From contig CALVRO010000011.1 in the NCBI GenBank assembly GCA_944358655.1, positions 1 to 46,043 on the forward strand: 46,043 nt of DNA. The letters run 5' to 3'. The position numbers and the translations under genes are program-made. Each line of letters begins with the position of its first letter. The stretch's first letter is position 1. Positions 36,464-42,618 of the stretch are shown here, piece by piece. This DNA is from an uncultured Clostridia bacterium (lineage in GTDB: Bacteria > Bacillota > Clostridia > Christensenellales > Borkfalkiaceae). The notes under the pieces were generated by a model. It ran no database searches, was not told the origin of the DNA, and saw only the letters and a program-made list of their open reading frames with translations.

Positions 36464-36582
36464 GCGGTAAAAGTGTATCTGAAGCGTAGTCCGTGAGATT
36501 TCTCCGTTTCGCGTCTTGTTCGCGTTCAACAAAAATGCTTGCTTCCATGGCGAAAGCGGCGCTTCGCTTGCCCGAAATGACA
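36464..36582 (+). repeat. Repeat family B copy (long form)
   Basis: GCGGTAAAAGTGTATCTGAAG ... GAGATTTCTCCGTTTCGC ... GCTTGCCCGAAATGACA; same long form as at 39,978. Confidence 0.65.
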
Positions 36583-36622
36583 ACTTAAAACAGGGGACAC
36601 AGGGAGAGCGAGGCGGCGCCGC

Positions 36623-39600
36623 TTAAAGCGCGCGGATGGATTCCACGGGCTTGCGGCGGGCGATGGAGTAGACGGGCAGGAATGTGGCGATAAATGAAGT
36701 TGCCGCCGCTATGCCCAGCATCACCAGCCACGAGAGGGGCCCGAAAACAAATATCGTTGCCCCCAGCGCGCCAGCCACTTCGGCGTTGAGTATGTCGCAC
36801 ACAACAAAGCTGAGCACCATTGCAAGCACAAAGCATATGGCCGTGATGATGACCGACTCGGAGTAGAATATTTTGAACACGTCGGCGCTCCTCGCACCCA
36901 CAGCGCGGAGGATGCCTATCTCCTTCTTTTTATAGGATATGGAAACCGAAATAAAGTTGAACAGCAGCAGCATGGAGAAGAGCGCCATGACAAGCCCCAC
37001 CCAGAGGAACACCTGCCCGAGCATTTCTATCATGCTGTCGGCGTAGCGGAGGCCGTTTTCAACGGGGGAATAGAGTTCGAACAGGCTGTCGTCGTCGGCC
37101 ACTACTCCCGCCGAGGATATAAGGCCGGTCAGCAGCCCCGTATCGGCGGGCTTGGACACGACCAGTTTATTATATTTGGCGTCCTCGGGCACAACGTACT
37201 TTGTCTTTTGGACGTTATAGTAGTCGCCGTATATGCCCGACTGCGTGTCGCGCATTATCTTGTCGAAGTCGCCGTCTGAAAGGTAGCAGCCGTCGCTGCT
37301 GTATGTGTTGAAGGGCTGAATGTAATAGCCGACGATCTTCCAATCGCCGTATTTTACCGAGGATTCGCCGAGGTAACACTCGACGGTGAGGGCCTCGTAT
37401 CCGCCCTCTGCGCCCGACAGCATGTCGGCCACAAGCTGCTTGCAGGAGGCCATCTCCTCCTCGGTGGGCTCGCGCATGAACCAATTACCCTCGTCGTCGT
37501 TCACATTGACGCATCCGTTGATGAATATGTCGTTACAGAGGTAATATCTCTCGTACAGTTCCTTCGCCTCGGCAGAGAGGCGATCCCCCTCCTCACTATC
37601 TCCGCGGTCATAGGCCTCGGCGGCCTGTTCATTAAGAAGGCCTGCCTTATTATTGACTAAATCTTGCACATACCCGTCCAGCCACGCATAGGGCACTACC
37701 ATCTGTCCGTCGGATATTGCCGAAGCGCCACCGAAATAGACCATTTCGGGCAGCTTCCCCTCGGAAGGAGTGAGCGTGCTTGCGCTGTTAAAATAGAGGG
37801 TGCGACCATCCTCGCCGTAGAACGACGCGGACGCTTTTATTGAATTATTGAGGTATTCGAAGTGCAGATCGCTGCGCCTATACGAAAAATCGGATAAATG
37901 CGCGTCGTAGAACGAGTCGGAGACGAGCAAACACTGATAGAAGCCGTACGCGAGCTCGTTGCTGAACTCGGTGGCCAGCATTTCATAGCCCGGCTTGCCA
38001 ACGTTTTCGTATTTGGAGATATCGGGTAAGTTGTTGTCGTACACGCCCGCCACGGTCAGAGCGACCTCGCTGTTGCCGTAACCGTTGCGGGTGCCCAGCA
38101 TAAGGGTCTGCCCTACAATGTCGGAGTAGTTGTTGAGCACGATTTCGCGCTGCCCGTCGGCGGAGTACAGGCCGCCGTCGCGTATGCTCTCGAAGGTGTA
38201 AGAGGAGATGACTATTTCGTCGTCGCCGAGGTCGGAGATGTCGCCCTCCGTCAGCATTTCGCCCTGCCATGCCGCAGGATCGAACTCGGCAAAGGAGTTG
38301 ACAGTGGTATCGTAATACCCTGCCGCAGGATTACCAACGTTTTTAAAGGTCAGATTGACGAACGAAGCATCATCATAGTTATAGACGGCCAGCGTCTTGT
38401 CGCCGTACAGCTCGGCGTAACGGTCGCGGTCGGCGGGCGTGAACAGCGTATAATTGGTGCCGCTGTAGGAGTATTCGGGCTCTCCGTTCTCATAGTAGAT
38501 ATCCTCGTAGGCGTACGCCTTGCGCATGGATATGTAGTCGGCGGAGTAGTCGGCATAGGTGTTGACGGCCGTCTGCACGCGGTCGTAGAAGGTCAGCGTG
38601 GAAAAGAGGCCGAAGAGCGTGAAGGCCACCGTAGAGAGGAGCACGGTGAAGAACAGGCGGAAGGGCTTTGCCTTGAGGCCGCTGGCGCCTATGCGCACGG
38701 CGTGGCGGGCGGGCAGGCGGGAGCGGATGAAGTTGCCCTCCTCCTTTTTGTACTGCCTGACCTTTATGTCCTCATCTGCGGTGGTTTTAAAAGTCTCGCG
38801 CGCGCCGCTGTCGTCTATGCGGGCCGCCTTTTTAAAGTCGGCTATCTCCCTCTTGCCGTTGGAGATGATGACTCCGCCCTCCGAAGAGCGCAAAAAGTCT
38901 GCTATTCTGGCAATTTCGCCGTCGGTGAGCGCCGAGCCGCTCTTTATGTTTATGATATCCCCGCCCGAAAAGCTAAGATTTTCCCCCGCGTTGCCTGCGG
39001 GTATCTTTGTCTTGGTGACGTCGGAGATGACTTTGCCGTCCTTGAGCTCGATTATCCTGTCGCCGTAGACCTCGGCAAATTCCCTGTCGTGCGACACGAC
39101 TATTACAAGCTTTTCCTCCGAAAGCTTTTTAAGCGTTTCGAAAACCTGTCTGCCCGTCGCCGAGTCGAGCGCGCCCGTAGGCTCGTCGGCCATGATTATT
39201 TCGGGATCCTTTACGAGGGCTCGGGCAATGGCCACGCGCTGTTTCTGGCCGCCCGAGAGCGTGTTGGGCTTGCGGCGGGCGAAGTTCTGCAGCTCTACTT
39301 TTTTAAGTATCTCGTCGACGAGCGCCCTGTCCCTCCCCCTGCTCTGCAGCTCGAGGGCGAGGGCAATGTTGTCGGCCACGGTGAATTCATCTAAAATGTT
39401 GTATTCCTGAAAGACGAAGCCTATAAAGGTGTTGCGGTAGCTGTCGAAGTCGCTCTGCGTGAAGTCCTTGCTCGAACGGCCCTTTATGATTATTTCGCCC
39501 GAGTCGGGGGAGTCGAGGCCGCCGCAGAGGTTGAGAAGGGTTGACTTGCCGCTGCCCGACTTGCCGAGCAGAAAGACCATGCCCTTCTCCTCGAACTTCA

Positions 39601-39679
39601 GCGAAACGCCGTCGAGGGCGCGCACCTCGGCTCCGCCCTTGGTTTTGTAAACTTTGGTGAGATCTTTGATTTCAAGCAT
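36623..39679 (-). CDS. ABC transporter, ATPase fused to FtsX-type permease (MacB-like)
   Basis: 1018 aa. Residues about 1-225 are a MacB/LolD-type ATPase: GKSGSGKST, signature LSGGQKQRV, Walker [14 protein letters not shown]-loop VVSHDR. After a charged linker, one membrane segment (about 335-358) leads to a large external domain of about 530 residues rich in Tyr and Asp. Three more membrane segments and the FtsX motif [11 protein letters not shown] follow (about 885-1018). This is the four-segment layout of mechanotransmission ABC proteins that export or extract peptides and lipids or support peptide-antibiotic resistance. Fusion to the ATPase makes it self-sufficient as a homodimer. Substrate unknown. 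AGGAGG is 16 bases before ATG, unusually far. It is divergent from the four-peptide operon. Confidence 0.9.
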
Positions 39680-39977: not shown

Positions 39978-40095
39978 GCGGAATAAGTGTATCTGAAACG
40001 AAGCTGTGGAGATTTCTCCGTTTCGCATCTTGTATGCGTTCAACGTAATTGCTCTCGTTCCAAGGAAAGCGGCGCTACGCTTGCCCGAAATGACA
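39978..40095 (+). repeat. Repeat family B copy (long form)
   Basis: GTGTATCTGAAACG ... GAGATTTCTCCGTTTCGC ... GCTTGCCCGAAATGACA. Confidence 0.65.
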
Positions 40096-40137
40096 GGCTC
40101 TACCCGAGGGGAGGGGCAGCGCCCCCTTCCCTCACCC

Positions 40138-40398: not shown

Positions 40399-40407
40399 TC
40401 TCCTTCC

Positions 40408-40456
40408 TGTCATTTCGAGCGAAGAACGCTCTGGCGTTCGCAGCCGAGAAATCTCC
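40408..40456 (-). repeat. Repeat family B copy, inverted
   Basis: The only copy in the other direction: TGTCATTTCGAGCGAAG ... GAGAAATCTCC. To its right, 40,460-40,760 is AT-rich with no gene recognised. Confidence 0.6.
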
Positions 40457-40766
40457 CGGGGCTAAGTTTTCAATACTACTTCCCCAAAACAAAAATATTT
40501 TTAACTATTTTGTTTAAGGTAATATGCGTTCGGTTATAATATGTGCGACAAAGAAAGTGACAATAAAAGCACTTTCAGCGTCAGGCATATATATTTTTAC
40601 AAATACAGGTCACAACTTGTTAATTACATTTAAATTCTGTTATAAATGAAATTTAGTTACAGAAATATCGCTTTAAAAATGTAAGTTAACATTAATTATC
40701 CGAATTATCATATAATATTGTTAGTAAATCACAAAATAAATTCTTTCAAAAATTTTTTCAATGTGA

Positions 40767-40795
40767 TTGACTAACACAATAACTTATGTTATACT
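40767..40795 (+). promoter_or_regulatory. Promoter of the small-peptide operon
   Basis: TTGACT (40767-40772), 17-bp spacer, TATACT (40790-40795). The 80-nt leader holds a perfect hairpin ATCAAGGG/CCCTTGAT (40805-40825). Confidence 0.75.
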
Positions 40796-40882
40796 TCTGC
40801 CGAAATCAAGGGAGGCACCCTTGATAGGTACACTGAATGCGGCACTCGGCCGCGCACAATACCTTTAAGGAGGTACAAAAAA

Positions 40883-40978
40883 ATGGAGATCTACGAAAAG
40901 TTAAATCAATTCGACGAAGAGGCAAACGAATACGGCGTGAACCCTCTTTCGTATGTAGCGCTCGGCTGCGGCAAATAA
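40883..40978 (+). CDS. Small peptide 1 (31 aa) of a tandem family
   Basis: ATG at 40883 with AAGGAGG nine bases upstream, behind a good promoter. The N-terminal half is acidic and helical (MEIYEKLNQFDEEANE); the C-terminal half YGVNPLSYVALGC ends Cys-Gly-Lys. It aligns with peptide 2 over most of its length. No signal peptide. Function unknown; could be a precursor of a processed or modified peptide, a signal or a toxin. Confidence 0.65.
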   Translation: MEIYEKLNQFDEEANEYGVNPLSYVALGCGK

Positions 40979-41053
40979 TCGCACCGAAAAATGCCCGCAA
41001 CTATGGCGCGGGCGGCACAGAAGAAAATGACGCAAATTAAAGGAGGCATTGAA

Positions 41054-41155
41054 ATGATTGATCTTTATGAAAAAATCGCAGAGCTTGACAGTGCCGAGAA
41101 TGAGATGGGCGTCAGCCCCCTCGAGTACGTCGCTCTCGACTGCGCAAGAAAGTAA
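41054..41155 (+). CDS. Small peptide 2 (33 aa), paralogue of peptide 1
   Basis: ATG at 41054 with AAAGGAGG seven bases upstream; this excludes the in-frame ATG at 40991. Acidic helical N-terminus (MIDLYEKIAELDSAENE), then MGVSPLEYVALDC and a basic ARK end. Identical to peptide 1 at YEK, NE, GV, PL, YVAL and Cys, while the DNA differs widely, so the protein sequence appears to be what is kept. Confidence 0.65.
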   Translation: MIDLYEKIAELDSAENEMGVSPLEYVALDCARK

Positions 41156-41221
41156 TTACGCTATAACGCAATTTATGCACAAAAACATATCCAAAGCCAA
41201 ACACGGCAGGAGTAAAAAGCA

Positions 41222-41329
41222 TTGTTCGACATATTCGAAGAGGTCGACCGCCAACGCGGCGGCGACAAAGAACAGCAAGACCACATTCGTAACATGTTGC
41301 TGTGGTACTACCTTTCCCTCAATCATTGA
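41222..41329 (+). CDS. Small peptide 3 (35 aa), TTG start
   Basis: TTG at 41222 with AGGAG nine bases upstream. The product has the same size and an acidic start (MFDIFEEVDRQ) but lacks the terminal Cys and ends MLLWYYLSLNH. It is less similar to the others and may be a different class or a decayed member. Confidence 0.45.
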   Translation: MFDIFEEVDRQRGGDKEQQDHIRNMLLWYYLSLNH

Positions 41330-41418
41330 GCCAAAGGACATAAAGTTCCGCAGGGCTACGACAGATAACGCTTAAAATTTTATTTCCATATTATCACAGA
41401 ATAAAGGAGAAAAAAGTT

Positions 41419-41523
41419 ATGGTTGACAAGTTTATCAGGATCAGCGAAGAGATGAAGAAGAGCAGGCAGAAGAACATGACCTATGGCGAGAGCATAATGA
41501 TGCTCCTTTCCATCTGCCGCTAA
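41419..41523 (+). CDS. Small peptide 4 (34 aa), related C-terminus
   Basis: ATG at 41419 with AAAGGAGA upstream. Basic middle (EEMKKSRQKN), then YGESIMMLLSIC-R, which lines up with the YGVNPLSYVALGC end of peptide 1 with one gap. A Cys next to last. Last gene of the row, followed by a terminator. Confidence 0.6.
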   Translation: MVDKFIRISEEMKKSRQKNMTYGESIMMLLSICR

Positions 41524-41530
41524 ACGGCGG

Positions 41531-41559
41531 CGCGCCGCTTCGGCGCGGGGCAAAATTTT
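41531..41559 (+). terminator. Terminator of the small-peptide operon
   Basis: CGCGCCG/CGGCGCG stem (41531-41537, 41541-41547) and a TTTTT run at 41556-41560. A second stem GAGACGGCGG/CCGCCGTCTC follows at 41,599-41,633. Confidence 0.65.
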
Positions 41560-41677
41560 TAATTACGTTTACACAATTTTAGTATCCCCCCTTTAAAGGA
41601 GACGGCGGACTGCGTTATGCGGCCCGCCGTCTCTCTTGCTGTTCAGCCCTTCCCCCGCCTCTCCTTTTTCGGCAGGG

Positions 41678-41714
41678 CGCAAAGGGGCCGCCGCGCCTGC
41701 GGCGCGGCGGCCCC
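41678..41714. repeat. GC palindrome, left copy flanking the XRE gene
   Basis: GCGCAAA then GGGGCCGCCGCGCC-TGC-GGCGCGGCGGCCCC. The same string recurs at 42,582-42,618 in the same orientation. Confidence 0.75.
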
Positions 41715-41734
41715 CGTTAAACAAGATAATAACT

Positions 41735-42433
41735 TTATTCCCGCCCCGCACACGCCGAGGCAACGGCATGCAGCCCGCCCGTCAGCGCGAAGGCTATAAT
41801 GAATATCACCCACGAAGGGTGCCAAATGCCCCACACGCAGCCGATAAACACATATATGGTGGCGGCGAGGGGCATGAGCATGGAGCCGAGGCCGCCGAAT
41901 ATGCGCGCCGAGAGCGGCTTTAAGCGGGCCCCTTCCTCATCTTCGTCCTCCTTGGCAAACAGGCCGTCGACAAAAATACACAGCGAGAGGGCAAACGGAA
42001 AGATTATCCACCCCGGGTGCCACAGCCCGCACAGCGCGCCTATGAGCACATAACTCAGGAGCGAAAGGGTCATTATGCACCCGCTGACCGCCCCGCCGAT
42101 GGCGCGCAGGCGGCGCACCCTTTCGGCCTCGCCCGCGTTTGCGGCACCGTCGGAGGGTGTTCGAGCAAGCTCCGCGGAGGGCGCCTCCTCGGGAGAGGGG
42201 GGCGCGGAGGCTGCCTGATCTTCGTTCGGCGTCGTTAAATCGCCGCGCATGAGGTCGTCCATGCCCACCGAAAATAGCTCGCAAAGACAGAGTATTTTTT
42301 CGGTCTCGGGATAGGCCTCGCCCGTCTCCCACTTGCTGACCGACTGTCTTGATACTCCCAAACGGCCGGCCAGTTCCTCTTGAGTCATTCCCTCCCTGCG
42401 GCGCAGGAATTGAATATTGTCGGCAAACGACAT
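41735..42433 (-). CDS. XRE-family regulator with C-terminal membrane domain
   Basis: 232 aa. Residues about 5-60 are a Cro/C1 helix-turn-helix (MTQEELAGRLGVSRQSVSKWETGEAYPE is its centre, split here by helix boundaries), followed by an Ala/Pro/Glu-rich linker and four membrane segments (about 108-228) with two near-identical GxWHP[GS]W[IV]I motifs. Such membrane-tethered XRE proteins are common in Firmicutes; the ligand is unknown. AAGGAGG precedes ATG. Convergent with the peptide operon and flanked by identical palindromes. Confidence 0.88.
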   Translation of the reverse strand: MSFADNIQFLRRREGMTQEELAGRLGVSRQSVSKWETGEAYPETEKILCLCELFSVGMDDLMRGDLTTPNEDQAASAPPSPEEAPSAELARTPSDGAANAGEAERVRRLRAIGGAVSGCIMTLSLLSYVLIGALCGLWHPGWIIFPFALSLCIFVDGLFAKEDEDEEGARLKPLSARIFGGLGSMLMPLAATIYVFIGCVWGIWHPSWVIFIIAFALTGGLHAVASACAGRE

Positions 42434-42496: not shown

Positions 42497-42581
42497 CCGA
42501 CTTTGGCGTGCTTTTTCGCAACTTCGGGTTGCGTTTGGGTAAAAATAGTTAATAAGCTCGTTTTGAGCTGTATGCGCGGAG

Positions 42582-42618
42582 CGCAAAGGGGCCGCCGCGC
42601 CTGCGGCGCGGCGGCCCC
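42582..42618. repeat. GC palindrome, right copy flanking the XRE gene
   Basis: Identical to 41,678-41,714. The remaining gap to 42,821 has small palindromes (ATGGGTATATACCCAT at 42,632 region, GCCCC...GGGGC) and no gene. Confidence 0.75.

What the first reader, a model, noticed from the sequence alone, without database searches (positions are those of the whole stretch)
40767..41560. Operon of four tiny genes encoding related 31-35 residue peptides next to a divergent ABC-FtsX exporter-like gene
Four consecutive short frames each have a strong, well-spaced ribosome site, share one good promoter with a hairpin leader, and end at a terminator. Peptides 1 and 2 are clear paralogues (YEK...NE..GV.PL.YVAL.C) although their DNA differs; peptide 4 ends YGESIMMLLSIC-R in the same style; three of four place a Cys within three residues of the C-terminus. 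No known family comes to mind. The neighbouring 1018-aa ABC-FtsX fusion and membrane XRE regulator suggest a peptide made, exported or resisted by the cell: signal, bacteriocin-like or modified peptide. Function is inference.
Basis: partly seen in the sequence, partly recalled or inferred. Interest (0 to 1): 0.78.

Follow-up and report, generated by a model that had tools for sequence, protein, structure and literature searches.

The report
Tiny peptides behind a frozen promoter
A genus of gut bacteria carries clusters of tiny genes, each making a peptide of about 30 amino acids, behind a promoter that has hardly changed while the peptides behind it have been swapped for quite different ones; what the peptides do is unknown.

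Summary
Four tiny frames with good ribosome sites stand behind one promoter at 40767-41523. Peptides 1 and 2 belong to a conserved family (consensus MxIYxxLNxLDE...GVSPLSYVxLxCAR). A profile finds it in 72 of 93 genomes of the host's genus, in one to five tandem copies, and not credibly in any other genus searched. The frames are under purifying selection (pN/pS about 0.18). Peptides 3 and 4 have homologues too.

The link to the ABC-FtsX gene fails: it lies beside the peptides only here. The unexpected feature is the promoter. About 130 bases, with dyads over and upstream of a near-consensus -35 box, are conserved across the genus. Where core peptides are missing, or at second copies, the same promoter leads to other tiny peptides, of about ten types by eye. 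In other genera the bare -35/-10 pattern lacks the dyad and precedes no tiny frame (21 sites).

Best reading: a genus-specific, tightly controlled microprotein operon whose products probably act inside the cell on a protein partner. Function is inference. Secretion as signal or bacteriocin is the main rival; no exporter, leader or immunity gene supports it.

The parts
40719..40733 (+). Upstream dyad TGTTAGTAAATCACA (TGTKA-N5-TMACA), probable operator 1
   Evidence: 43 bases from the second dyad, as in 39 of 64 loci that could be read
40762..40776 (+). Second dyad TGTGATTGACTAACA overlapping the -35 box, probable operator 2
40767..40795 (+). Promoter TTGACT-17-TATACT with extended -10 (TG); -35/-10 pattern found in 80 of 93 genus genomes
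40805..40825 (+). 5' leader hairpin ATCAAGGG/CCCTTGAT; pairing kept with changed sequence in relatives
40883..40978 (+). Peptide 1, 31 aa, core family
41054..41155 (+). Peptide 2, 33 aa, core family
41222..41329 (+). Peptide 3, 35 aa, TTG start, accessory type; homologues in L024 and L094 at the same place in the operon
41419..41523 (+). Peptide 4, 34 aa, accessory type; homologue behind its own copy of the promoter in L214
41537..41551 (+). Weak terminator-like hairpin
   Evidence: not above the chance count
36623..39679 (-). ABC-FtsX fusion, 1018 aa: a neighbour, not part of the system
41735..42433 (-). XRE regulator with probable membrane segments (by reading), 232 aa: neighbour in 10 of 76 contigs only

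Best explanation
Shown by sequence: a genus-specific transcription unit (genus probably Candidatus Coproplasma) whose conserved promoter drives one or more tiny peptide genes, each with its own ribosome site; the core peptide is a conserved, acidic protein of about 30 residues. Inferred: a dimeric repressor binds the dyads, one of which covers the -35 box, and keeps a near-consensus promoter shut; on a signal it lets go and the peptides are made in bulk. Inferred: the peptides stay in the cytoplasm and act as short helical ligands. An acidic N-terminal helix and the conserved C-terminal segment PLSYVxLxCAR dock on a protein (enzyme, regulator or membrane-edge protein) and change its activity. 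Tandem and swapped peptide types would hit related or different partners under the same signal.
For: Family in 72 of 93 genus genomes; purifying selection with pN/pS 0.18, against 1.3-2.5 in the two shifted frames; net charge -1 to -9 in all 123 core frames. Promoter pattern (up to one mismatch) in 80 of 93 genus genomes, reversed control 0 in all 93. 83 of 84 distinct promoter sites in fetched genus loci lead first to an SD-led frame of 19-48 aa; all 84 have an arm that starts TGT, against 0 of 21 sites in other genera, where 11 of 21 have an SD-led frame within 320 bases, all 156-491 aa. 5' hairpin: own arms pair by at least 5 bases in 72 of 84 loci against about half when 3' parts are swapped. 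No linked exporter kept. AlphaFold gives helix 2-16, turn, helix 21-26.
Against: No partner and no regulator was identified. The AlphaFold model is weak (pLDDT 67, pTM 0.23). The dyad alone is not exclusive: 165 forward matches in 20 other genus genomes against 87 for the reversed control; in the window's own genome 3 places against 2 for the control. Both dyads at the 43-base spacing were found by pattern in only 39 of 64 readable loci. A LacI-family gene just upstream of several second-copy promoters is in only 20 of 93 genomes and not found in the window's own, so it is not the general regulator. The variety of peptide types fits secreted effectors at least as well as intracellular ligands. 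Repression rather than activation is inferred from dyad position only.
Confidence: 0.4

Rival explanations
1. Secreted unmodified peptides: a bacteriocin-like, surfactant or signalling regulon in which one promoter motif serves changing peptides, exported by an unlinked transporter.
For: Same promoter with about ten peptide types by eye; tandem copies 1-5; some 21-22 residue cationic peptides (MKFIQWLRYINSLLHPNRHSR in L217, MRFIHWLRYIGSLLTPAKSKKN in L219) and peptides with high helical moment (type RRC: mean percentile 0.93, 5 of 8 at or above 0.95).
Against: Core peptides: moment percentile 0.69, 10 of 115 at or above 0.95; the acidic accessory group 0.23, 0 of 13. No leader by reading, no immunity gene or exporter kept beside the peptides. 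The core C-terminus is conserved, not variable.
Confidence: 0.27
2. Toxic or growth-arresting micropeptides held shut by a repressor and released by stress, like small SOS-controlled toxins.
For: Near-consensus promoter with a dyad over the -35 box; tiny products.
Against: No membrane-spanning segment in the core by reading; no antitoxin seen; nothing in Rfam at the curated threshold (best match 21.8 bits against 41.2); nothing for the four peptides in PADLOC.
Confidence: 0.13
3. Prophage or plasmid cargo such as superinfection or counter-defence peptides.
For: Lineage-specific, rapidly changing small genes are typical of phages (established knowledge).
Against: Seven pattern matches in viral contigs, none confirmed as a relative, no exact promoter match there, no plasmid match, no PHROG match; stable place behind a SpoIIQ-like gene in 47 of 62 contigs with at least 1 kb upstream.
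Confidence: 0.06
4. Chance frames, or leader peptides whose sequence does not matter.
For: Short frames arise by chance.
Against: pN/pS 0.18 and third-position bias, 123 frames with kept motif.
Confidence: 0.01

Closest known systems
Phenol-soluble modulin operons of staphylococci (psm-alpha, psm-beta; recalled)
   Same: Several tiny leaderless peptide genes in tandem, strong ribosome sites, one tightly controlled promoter, sequences that vary among species
   Different: Core peptides here are acidic, carry a conserved Cys and are not markedly amphipathic; no linked exporter; the probable operator is a pair of dyads, not direct repeats
Peptide bacteriocin regulons with a shared promoter motif (blp, pln; recalled)
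   Same: One promoter motif in front of different small peptide genes
   Different: No leader with GG by reading, no immunity gene, exporter, histidine kinase or response regulator kept beside the core peptides
Intracellular inhibitor microproteins such as Sda, MciZ, SinI (recalled)
   Same: Short soluble helical proteins, no export signal, conserved sequence
   Different: No sequence relation found (Pfam, NCBIfam, PHROGs and PDB searches); here many sequence types sit behind one promoter
LacI-type operator (lac operator, recalled: TGTGA-N5-TAACA)
   Same: Same half sites and 5-base spacing as the dyads here
   Different: No central CG; the LacI-family gene seen near some copies is missing from 73 of 93 genomes of the genus at the limit used

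Membership tests
Phenol-soluble modulins | Amphipathic helix | tested here: not met
   Core maximum moment at mean percentile 0.69 of own shuffles, 10 of 115 at or above 0.95; some accessory types do score high
Phenol-soluble modulins | Export by a dedicated ABC transporter | tested here: inconclusive
   No exporter kept beside the peptides in 76 contigs, many of them short; an unlinked one cannot be excluded
Class II or leaderless bacteriocins | Double-glycine leader, or cationic leaderless peptide, with immunity gene | tested here: not met
   No GG leader by reading; core net charge -1 to -9; no immunity-like gene kept with the peptides (labels by my reading)
RiPP precursor peptides | Linked modification enzyme | tested here: not met
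   No such gene kept in the neighbourhoods (labels by my reading)
Peptide pheromones with linked receptor | Signal sequence and adjacent receptor or regulator | tested here: not met
   No hydrophobic signal segment by reading; XRE gene near in 10 of 76 contigs only
Bacteriocin export by ABC-FtsX (MacB-like) | ABC-FtsX gene co-occurs beside the peptides | tested here: not met
   Only the window has it beside the peptides, of 47 contigs with at least 4.3 kb upstream
Known protein families | Profile match | tested here: not met
   No match at or above a curated cut-off for p1-p4 in Pfam (best: p4, E 0.077), none listed in PHROGs, NCBIfam, PADLOC; PDB with profile A2 best E 0.12
Intracellular inhibitor microproteins | Defined protein partner | not testable with these tools
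   Needs pull-down or genetics

The most novel reading that the evidence does not exclude
A genus-wide regulatory cassette in which a hyperconserved promoter with dyad operators acts as a fixed socket, and the tiny peptide genes plugged into it are exchanged, duplicated and diversified: a dedicated, stimulus-controlled microprotein arsenal of a kind not described before.
Probability: 0.35. Interest if true: 0.82.

Novelty: new variant of a known kind. Interest (0 to 1): 0.62.

Why it matters
Peptides of 30 residues are usually missed by gene finders. Here the promoter, more than the peptides, marks the genes: it gives a way to list such peptides in a whole genus of uncultured gut bacteria and to see how peptides are exchanged under constant control. 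If the regulator and its signal are found, a large set of unknown microproteins gets a common condition in which to test them.

Tried and rejected
ABC-FtsX as partner: rejected. XRE gene as general partner: rejected. LacI-family gene as the regulator: first attractive because five orthologues (L204, L205, L209, L210, L221) and one distant relative (L208) lie 122-201 bases upstream of second-copy promoters and the dyads resemble the lac operator (recalled); rejected as general because at E up to 1e-30 it is in 20 of 93 genomes and not found in the window's own. Of those 20 loci, five gave no readable end and two stop within 13 bases after the gene; of the other 13, six carry the promoter at 0-2 mismatches followed by a peptide and a seventh a peptide behind a degenerate promoter. 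Amphipathic surfactant reading of the core: not supported. Operator uniqueness: in the window's own genome only 3 dyad places exist, 2 of them here, with 2 for the reversed control; in 20 other genomes, with a slightly looser pattern, the dyad is more common (165 against 87 control), so uniqueness is not general. Dyad control: with the loose rule (4 of 5 arm letters) 5 of 21 out-of-genus sites would pass; with TGT at the start of the arm none does, against 84 of 84 in the genus. DNA repeats of 12 bases or more within the operon: none found. RNA family: only a sub-threshold match. MAFFT alignment of the leaders misplaced the 3' arms, so the pairing was tested by swapping. SpoIIQ-like genes in other genera of the family: one search gave loci for 25 of 54 such genomes; 17 could be read by my motif and by eye none has a peptide of this kind downstream.

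Full report
WHAT IS THERE. Four small frames follow one promoter at 40767: p1 40883-40978, p2 41054-41155, p3 41222-41329, p4 41419-41523. Each has a GGAG-type ribosome site 7-9 bases ahead of its start. p1 and p2 are 52% identical.

THE CORE FAMILY IS REAL. A protein search with p1 (E up to 1; weakest hit 0.05) found relatives in 28 of 61 genomes, all of the same genus (28 of 37 genus genomes, own included; 0 of 24 others). A scan of the species genomes of GTDB 220 with one nine-residue pattern, GV[SN]PLSYV[AV], gave 25 confirmed loci, all titled as Clostridia MAGs or, once, Candidatus Coproplasma avicola, which is my ground for the genus name. In 76 contigs from 72 genomes I counted 123 core frames, one to five per contig, a few cut by contig ends. 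In 10 orthologues each of p1 and p2, pS is 0.593 and 0.610, pN 0.108 and 0.111; the two shifted frames give pN/pS of 1.3 to 2.5. Cys is third from the end in 108 of 123, elsewhere in the last eight residues in 6, absent there in 9; all 123 have negative net charge. In the nine contigs of the window's lineage that hold both, the p1 type precedes the p2 type.

ACCESSORY PEPTIDES. p3 has homologues at the same place in L024 and L094 (pairwise E 3e-8 for L094, 0.023 in a search for L024). p4 has one in L214 (pairwise E 9e-7). Other loci carry further types before, between or after core frames.

NEIGHBOURS. Labels here are my reading of the sequences except where Pfam was run. The usual place is behind a SpoIIQ-like gene on the same strand: 47 of 76 contigs, or 47 of the 62 with at least 1 kb upstream, five of them with another gene between. 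Downstream genes vary (MocR-type regulator, Ddl, MurF and others). The ABC-FtsX gene is beside the peptides only in the window, of 47 contigs with at least 4.3 kb upstream. For other genera of the family, 17 readable loci with the SpoIIQ-like gene (of 25 given, of 54 genomes with a match) showed no such peptide downstream.

THE PROMOTER. In loci with enough upstream sequence, about 130 bases line up without gaps: an A/T tract, a dyad TGTTA-N5-TAACA over the -35 box, a second dyad upstream, and TTGACTAACA-N10-TGcTATACT. Two dyads are found by pattern in 40 of 64 readable loci, 43 bases apart in 39 and 44 in one; in the other 24 at least one of them departs from the pattern. Among 78 promoter sites the mean frequency of the commonest base is 0.74 over the 100 bases upstream of the -35, 0.60 in the 40 bases before that, and 0.37 in the region 60-159 bases downstream (the -35/-10 part and the dyad arm were used to choose the sites). 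The -35/-10 pattern with up to one mismatch occurs in 80 of 93 genus genomes, reversed control 0 in all; in three of the 80 (G009, G025, G437) the only match is a one-mismatch site that I did not fetch and that may be chance.

SAME PROMOTER, OTHER PEPTIDES. One search listed 32 sites away from the core loci; I fetched 20 (all 16 without mismatch and 4 of 16 with one). Of the 16, 15 lead to a small SD-led frame (in L218 the dyad arm reads AGTGA); in L208 the rule finds none, the looser rule lists a 36-residue TTG frame, and a GTG frame is open too. Of the four with a mismatch, L212 and L221 lead to small frames; L220 and L222 lack the dyad and lead to proteins of 670 and 338 residues. By eye, without a test of relatedness among them, these are about ten types: MYDF..., MDMF..., MKWF..., MIYELF..., the ...DRRC...LDLKT type, a p4 type, MFFDF..., MNSLIK...MATW, cationic peptides of 21-22 residues, and MKINFEKL...LNSAR. 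Over all fetched genus loci, 84 distinct sites with the dyad arm gave 83 first frames of 19-48 residues, 48 of them 30 or 31. Control: of 248 genomes of other genera of the family 21 have a matching site (47 of 53 genus genomes there). All 21 sites were read: none has an arm starting TGT (84 of 84 in the genus do), though 5 match the arm at 4 of 5 letters; 11 have an SD-led frame within 320 bases, all 156-491 residues (for the first 18).

LEADER HAIRPIN. Leaders fold near the 5' end (mean z -2.0, 57 of 84 below -1, mononucleotide shuffles). The 5' arm pairs by five or more bases with its own downstream part in 72 of 84, against 48-52% when these parts are swapped between loci, so the pairing is kept by matching changes. 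Some short leaders (such as L079, L090, L091, L103, L106) show no such hairpin.

WHAT IT IS NOT. No family at a curated cut-off in Pfam, and none listed in PHROGs, NCBIfam or PADLOC, for the four peptides; none in the PDB (best E 0.12); no Rfam match at threshold in 40400-41700; no confirmed viral relative, no viral promoter match, no plasmid match. Searches of open papers for the genus name (6 papers), for the family name with small proteins (0), and for motif strings (11 papers; the 8 listed hold only the DNA string) showed no report of it in the listings, which is all I saw; on related terms likewise.

HOW IT MAY WORK. A near-consensus promoter with a dyad on its -35 box is best read as repressed, with strong output on release (inference). 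What binds is unknown. The peptides have no export signal by reading, and the core is acidic, little amphipathic (percentile 0.69) and predicted, weakly, as two short helices (pLDDT 67). I therefore favour intracellular action on a protein partner (0.4) over secretion (0.27) or toxicity (0.13).

LIMITS. The genomes are mostly draft MAGs; 21 of 93 lack a core match. In 17 of these 21 the SpoIIQ-like gene was found, 15 could be read, and in three a diverged 31-residue peptide (ending LNSAR or LNSAK plus one residue) sits at the usual place (L136, L137, L141). Related species are not independent, so counts of loci are not counts of events.

Noticed in passing
L204, L205, L209, L210, L221 (and a distant relative in L208): A LacI-family regulator gene lies 122-201 bases upstream of second copies of the promoter, on the same strand; present in 20 of 93 genus genomes.
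   Followed up: partly
L094 upstream of the core frames; also L098: 30-residue peptides of another type with two or more Cys (MDMYxNLTxTCxxHCxNY... in L094, tandem; MDMYTYLTQPAALFCMMYC... in L098) precede the core frames.
   Followed up: no
L082-L086 (genomes G436, G437): Core frames of which several have lost the Cys (ending MGL, LGY, MGR; L085 keeps it), with a -10 that reads TAGAAT in L084 and L085.
   Followed up: no
window about 41677-41715 and 42578-42617: A long GC-rich hairpin sequence (gcgcaaaggggccgccgcgcctgcggcgcggcggcccc) occurs twice between genes, like an interspersed palindromic repeat (seen).
   Followed up: no
window about 36500-36600 and 40016-40100: Two similar intergenic stretches (ttctccgtttcgc.tcttg...gcttgcccgaaatgaca), probably a dispersed repeat (seen).
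   Followed up: no
L136, L137, L141: Diverged 31-residue peptides with Ser in place of Cys (LNSAR, LNSAK) at the usual place behind the SpoIIQ-like gene in genomes without a core match.
   Followed up: partly
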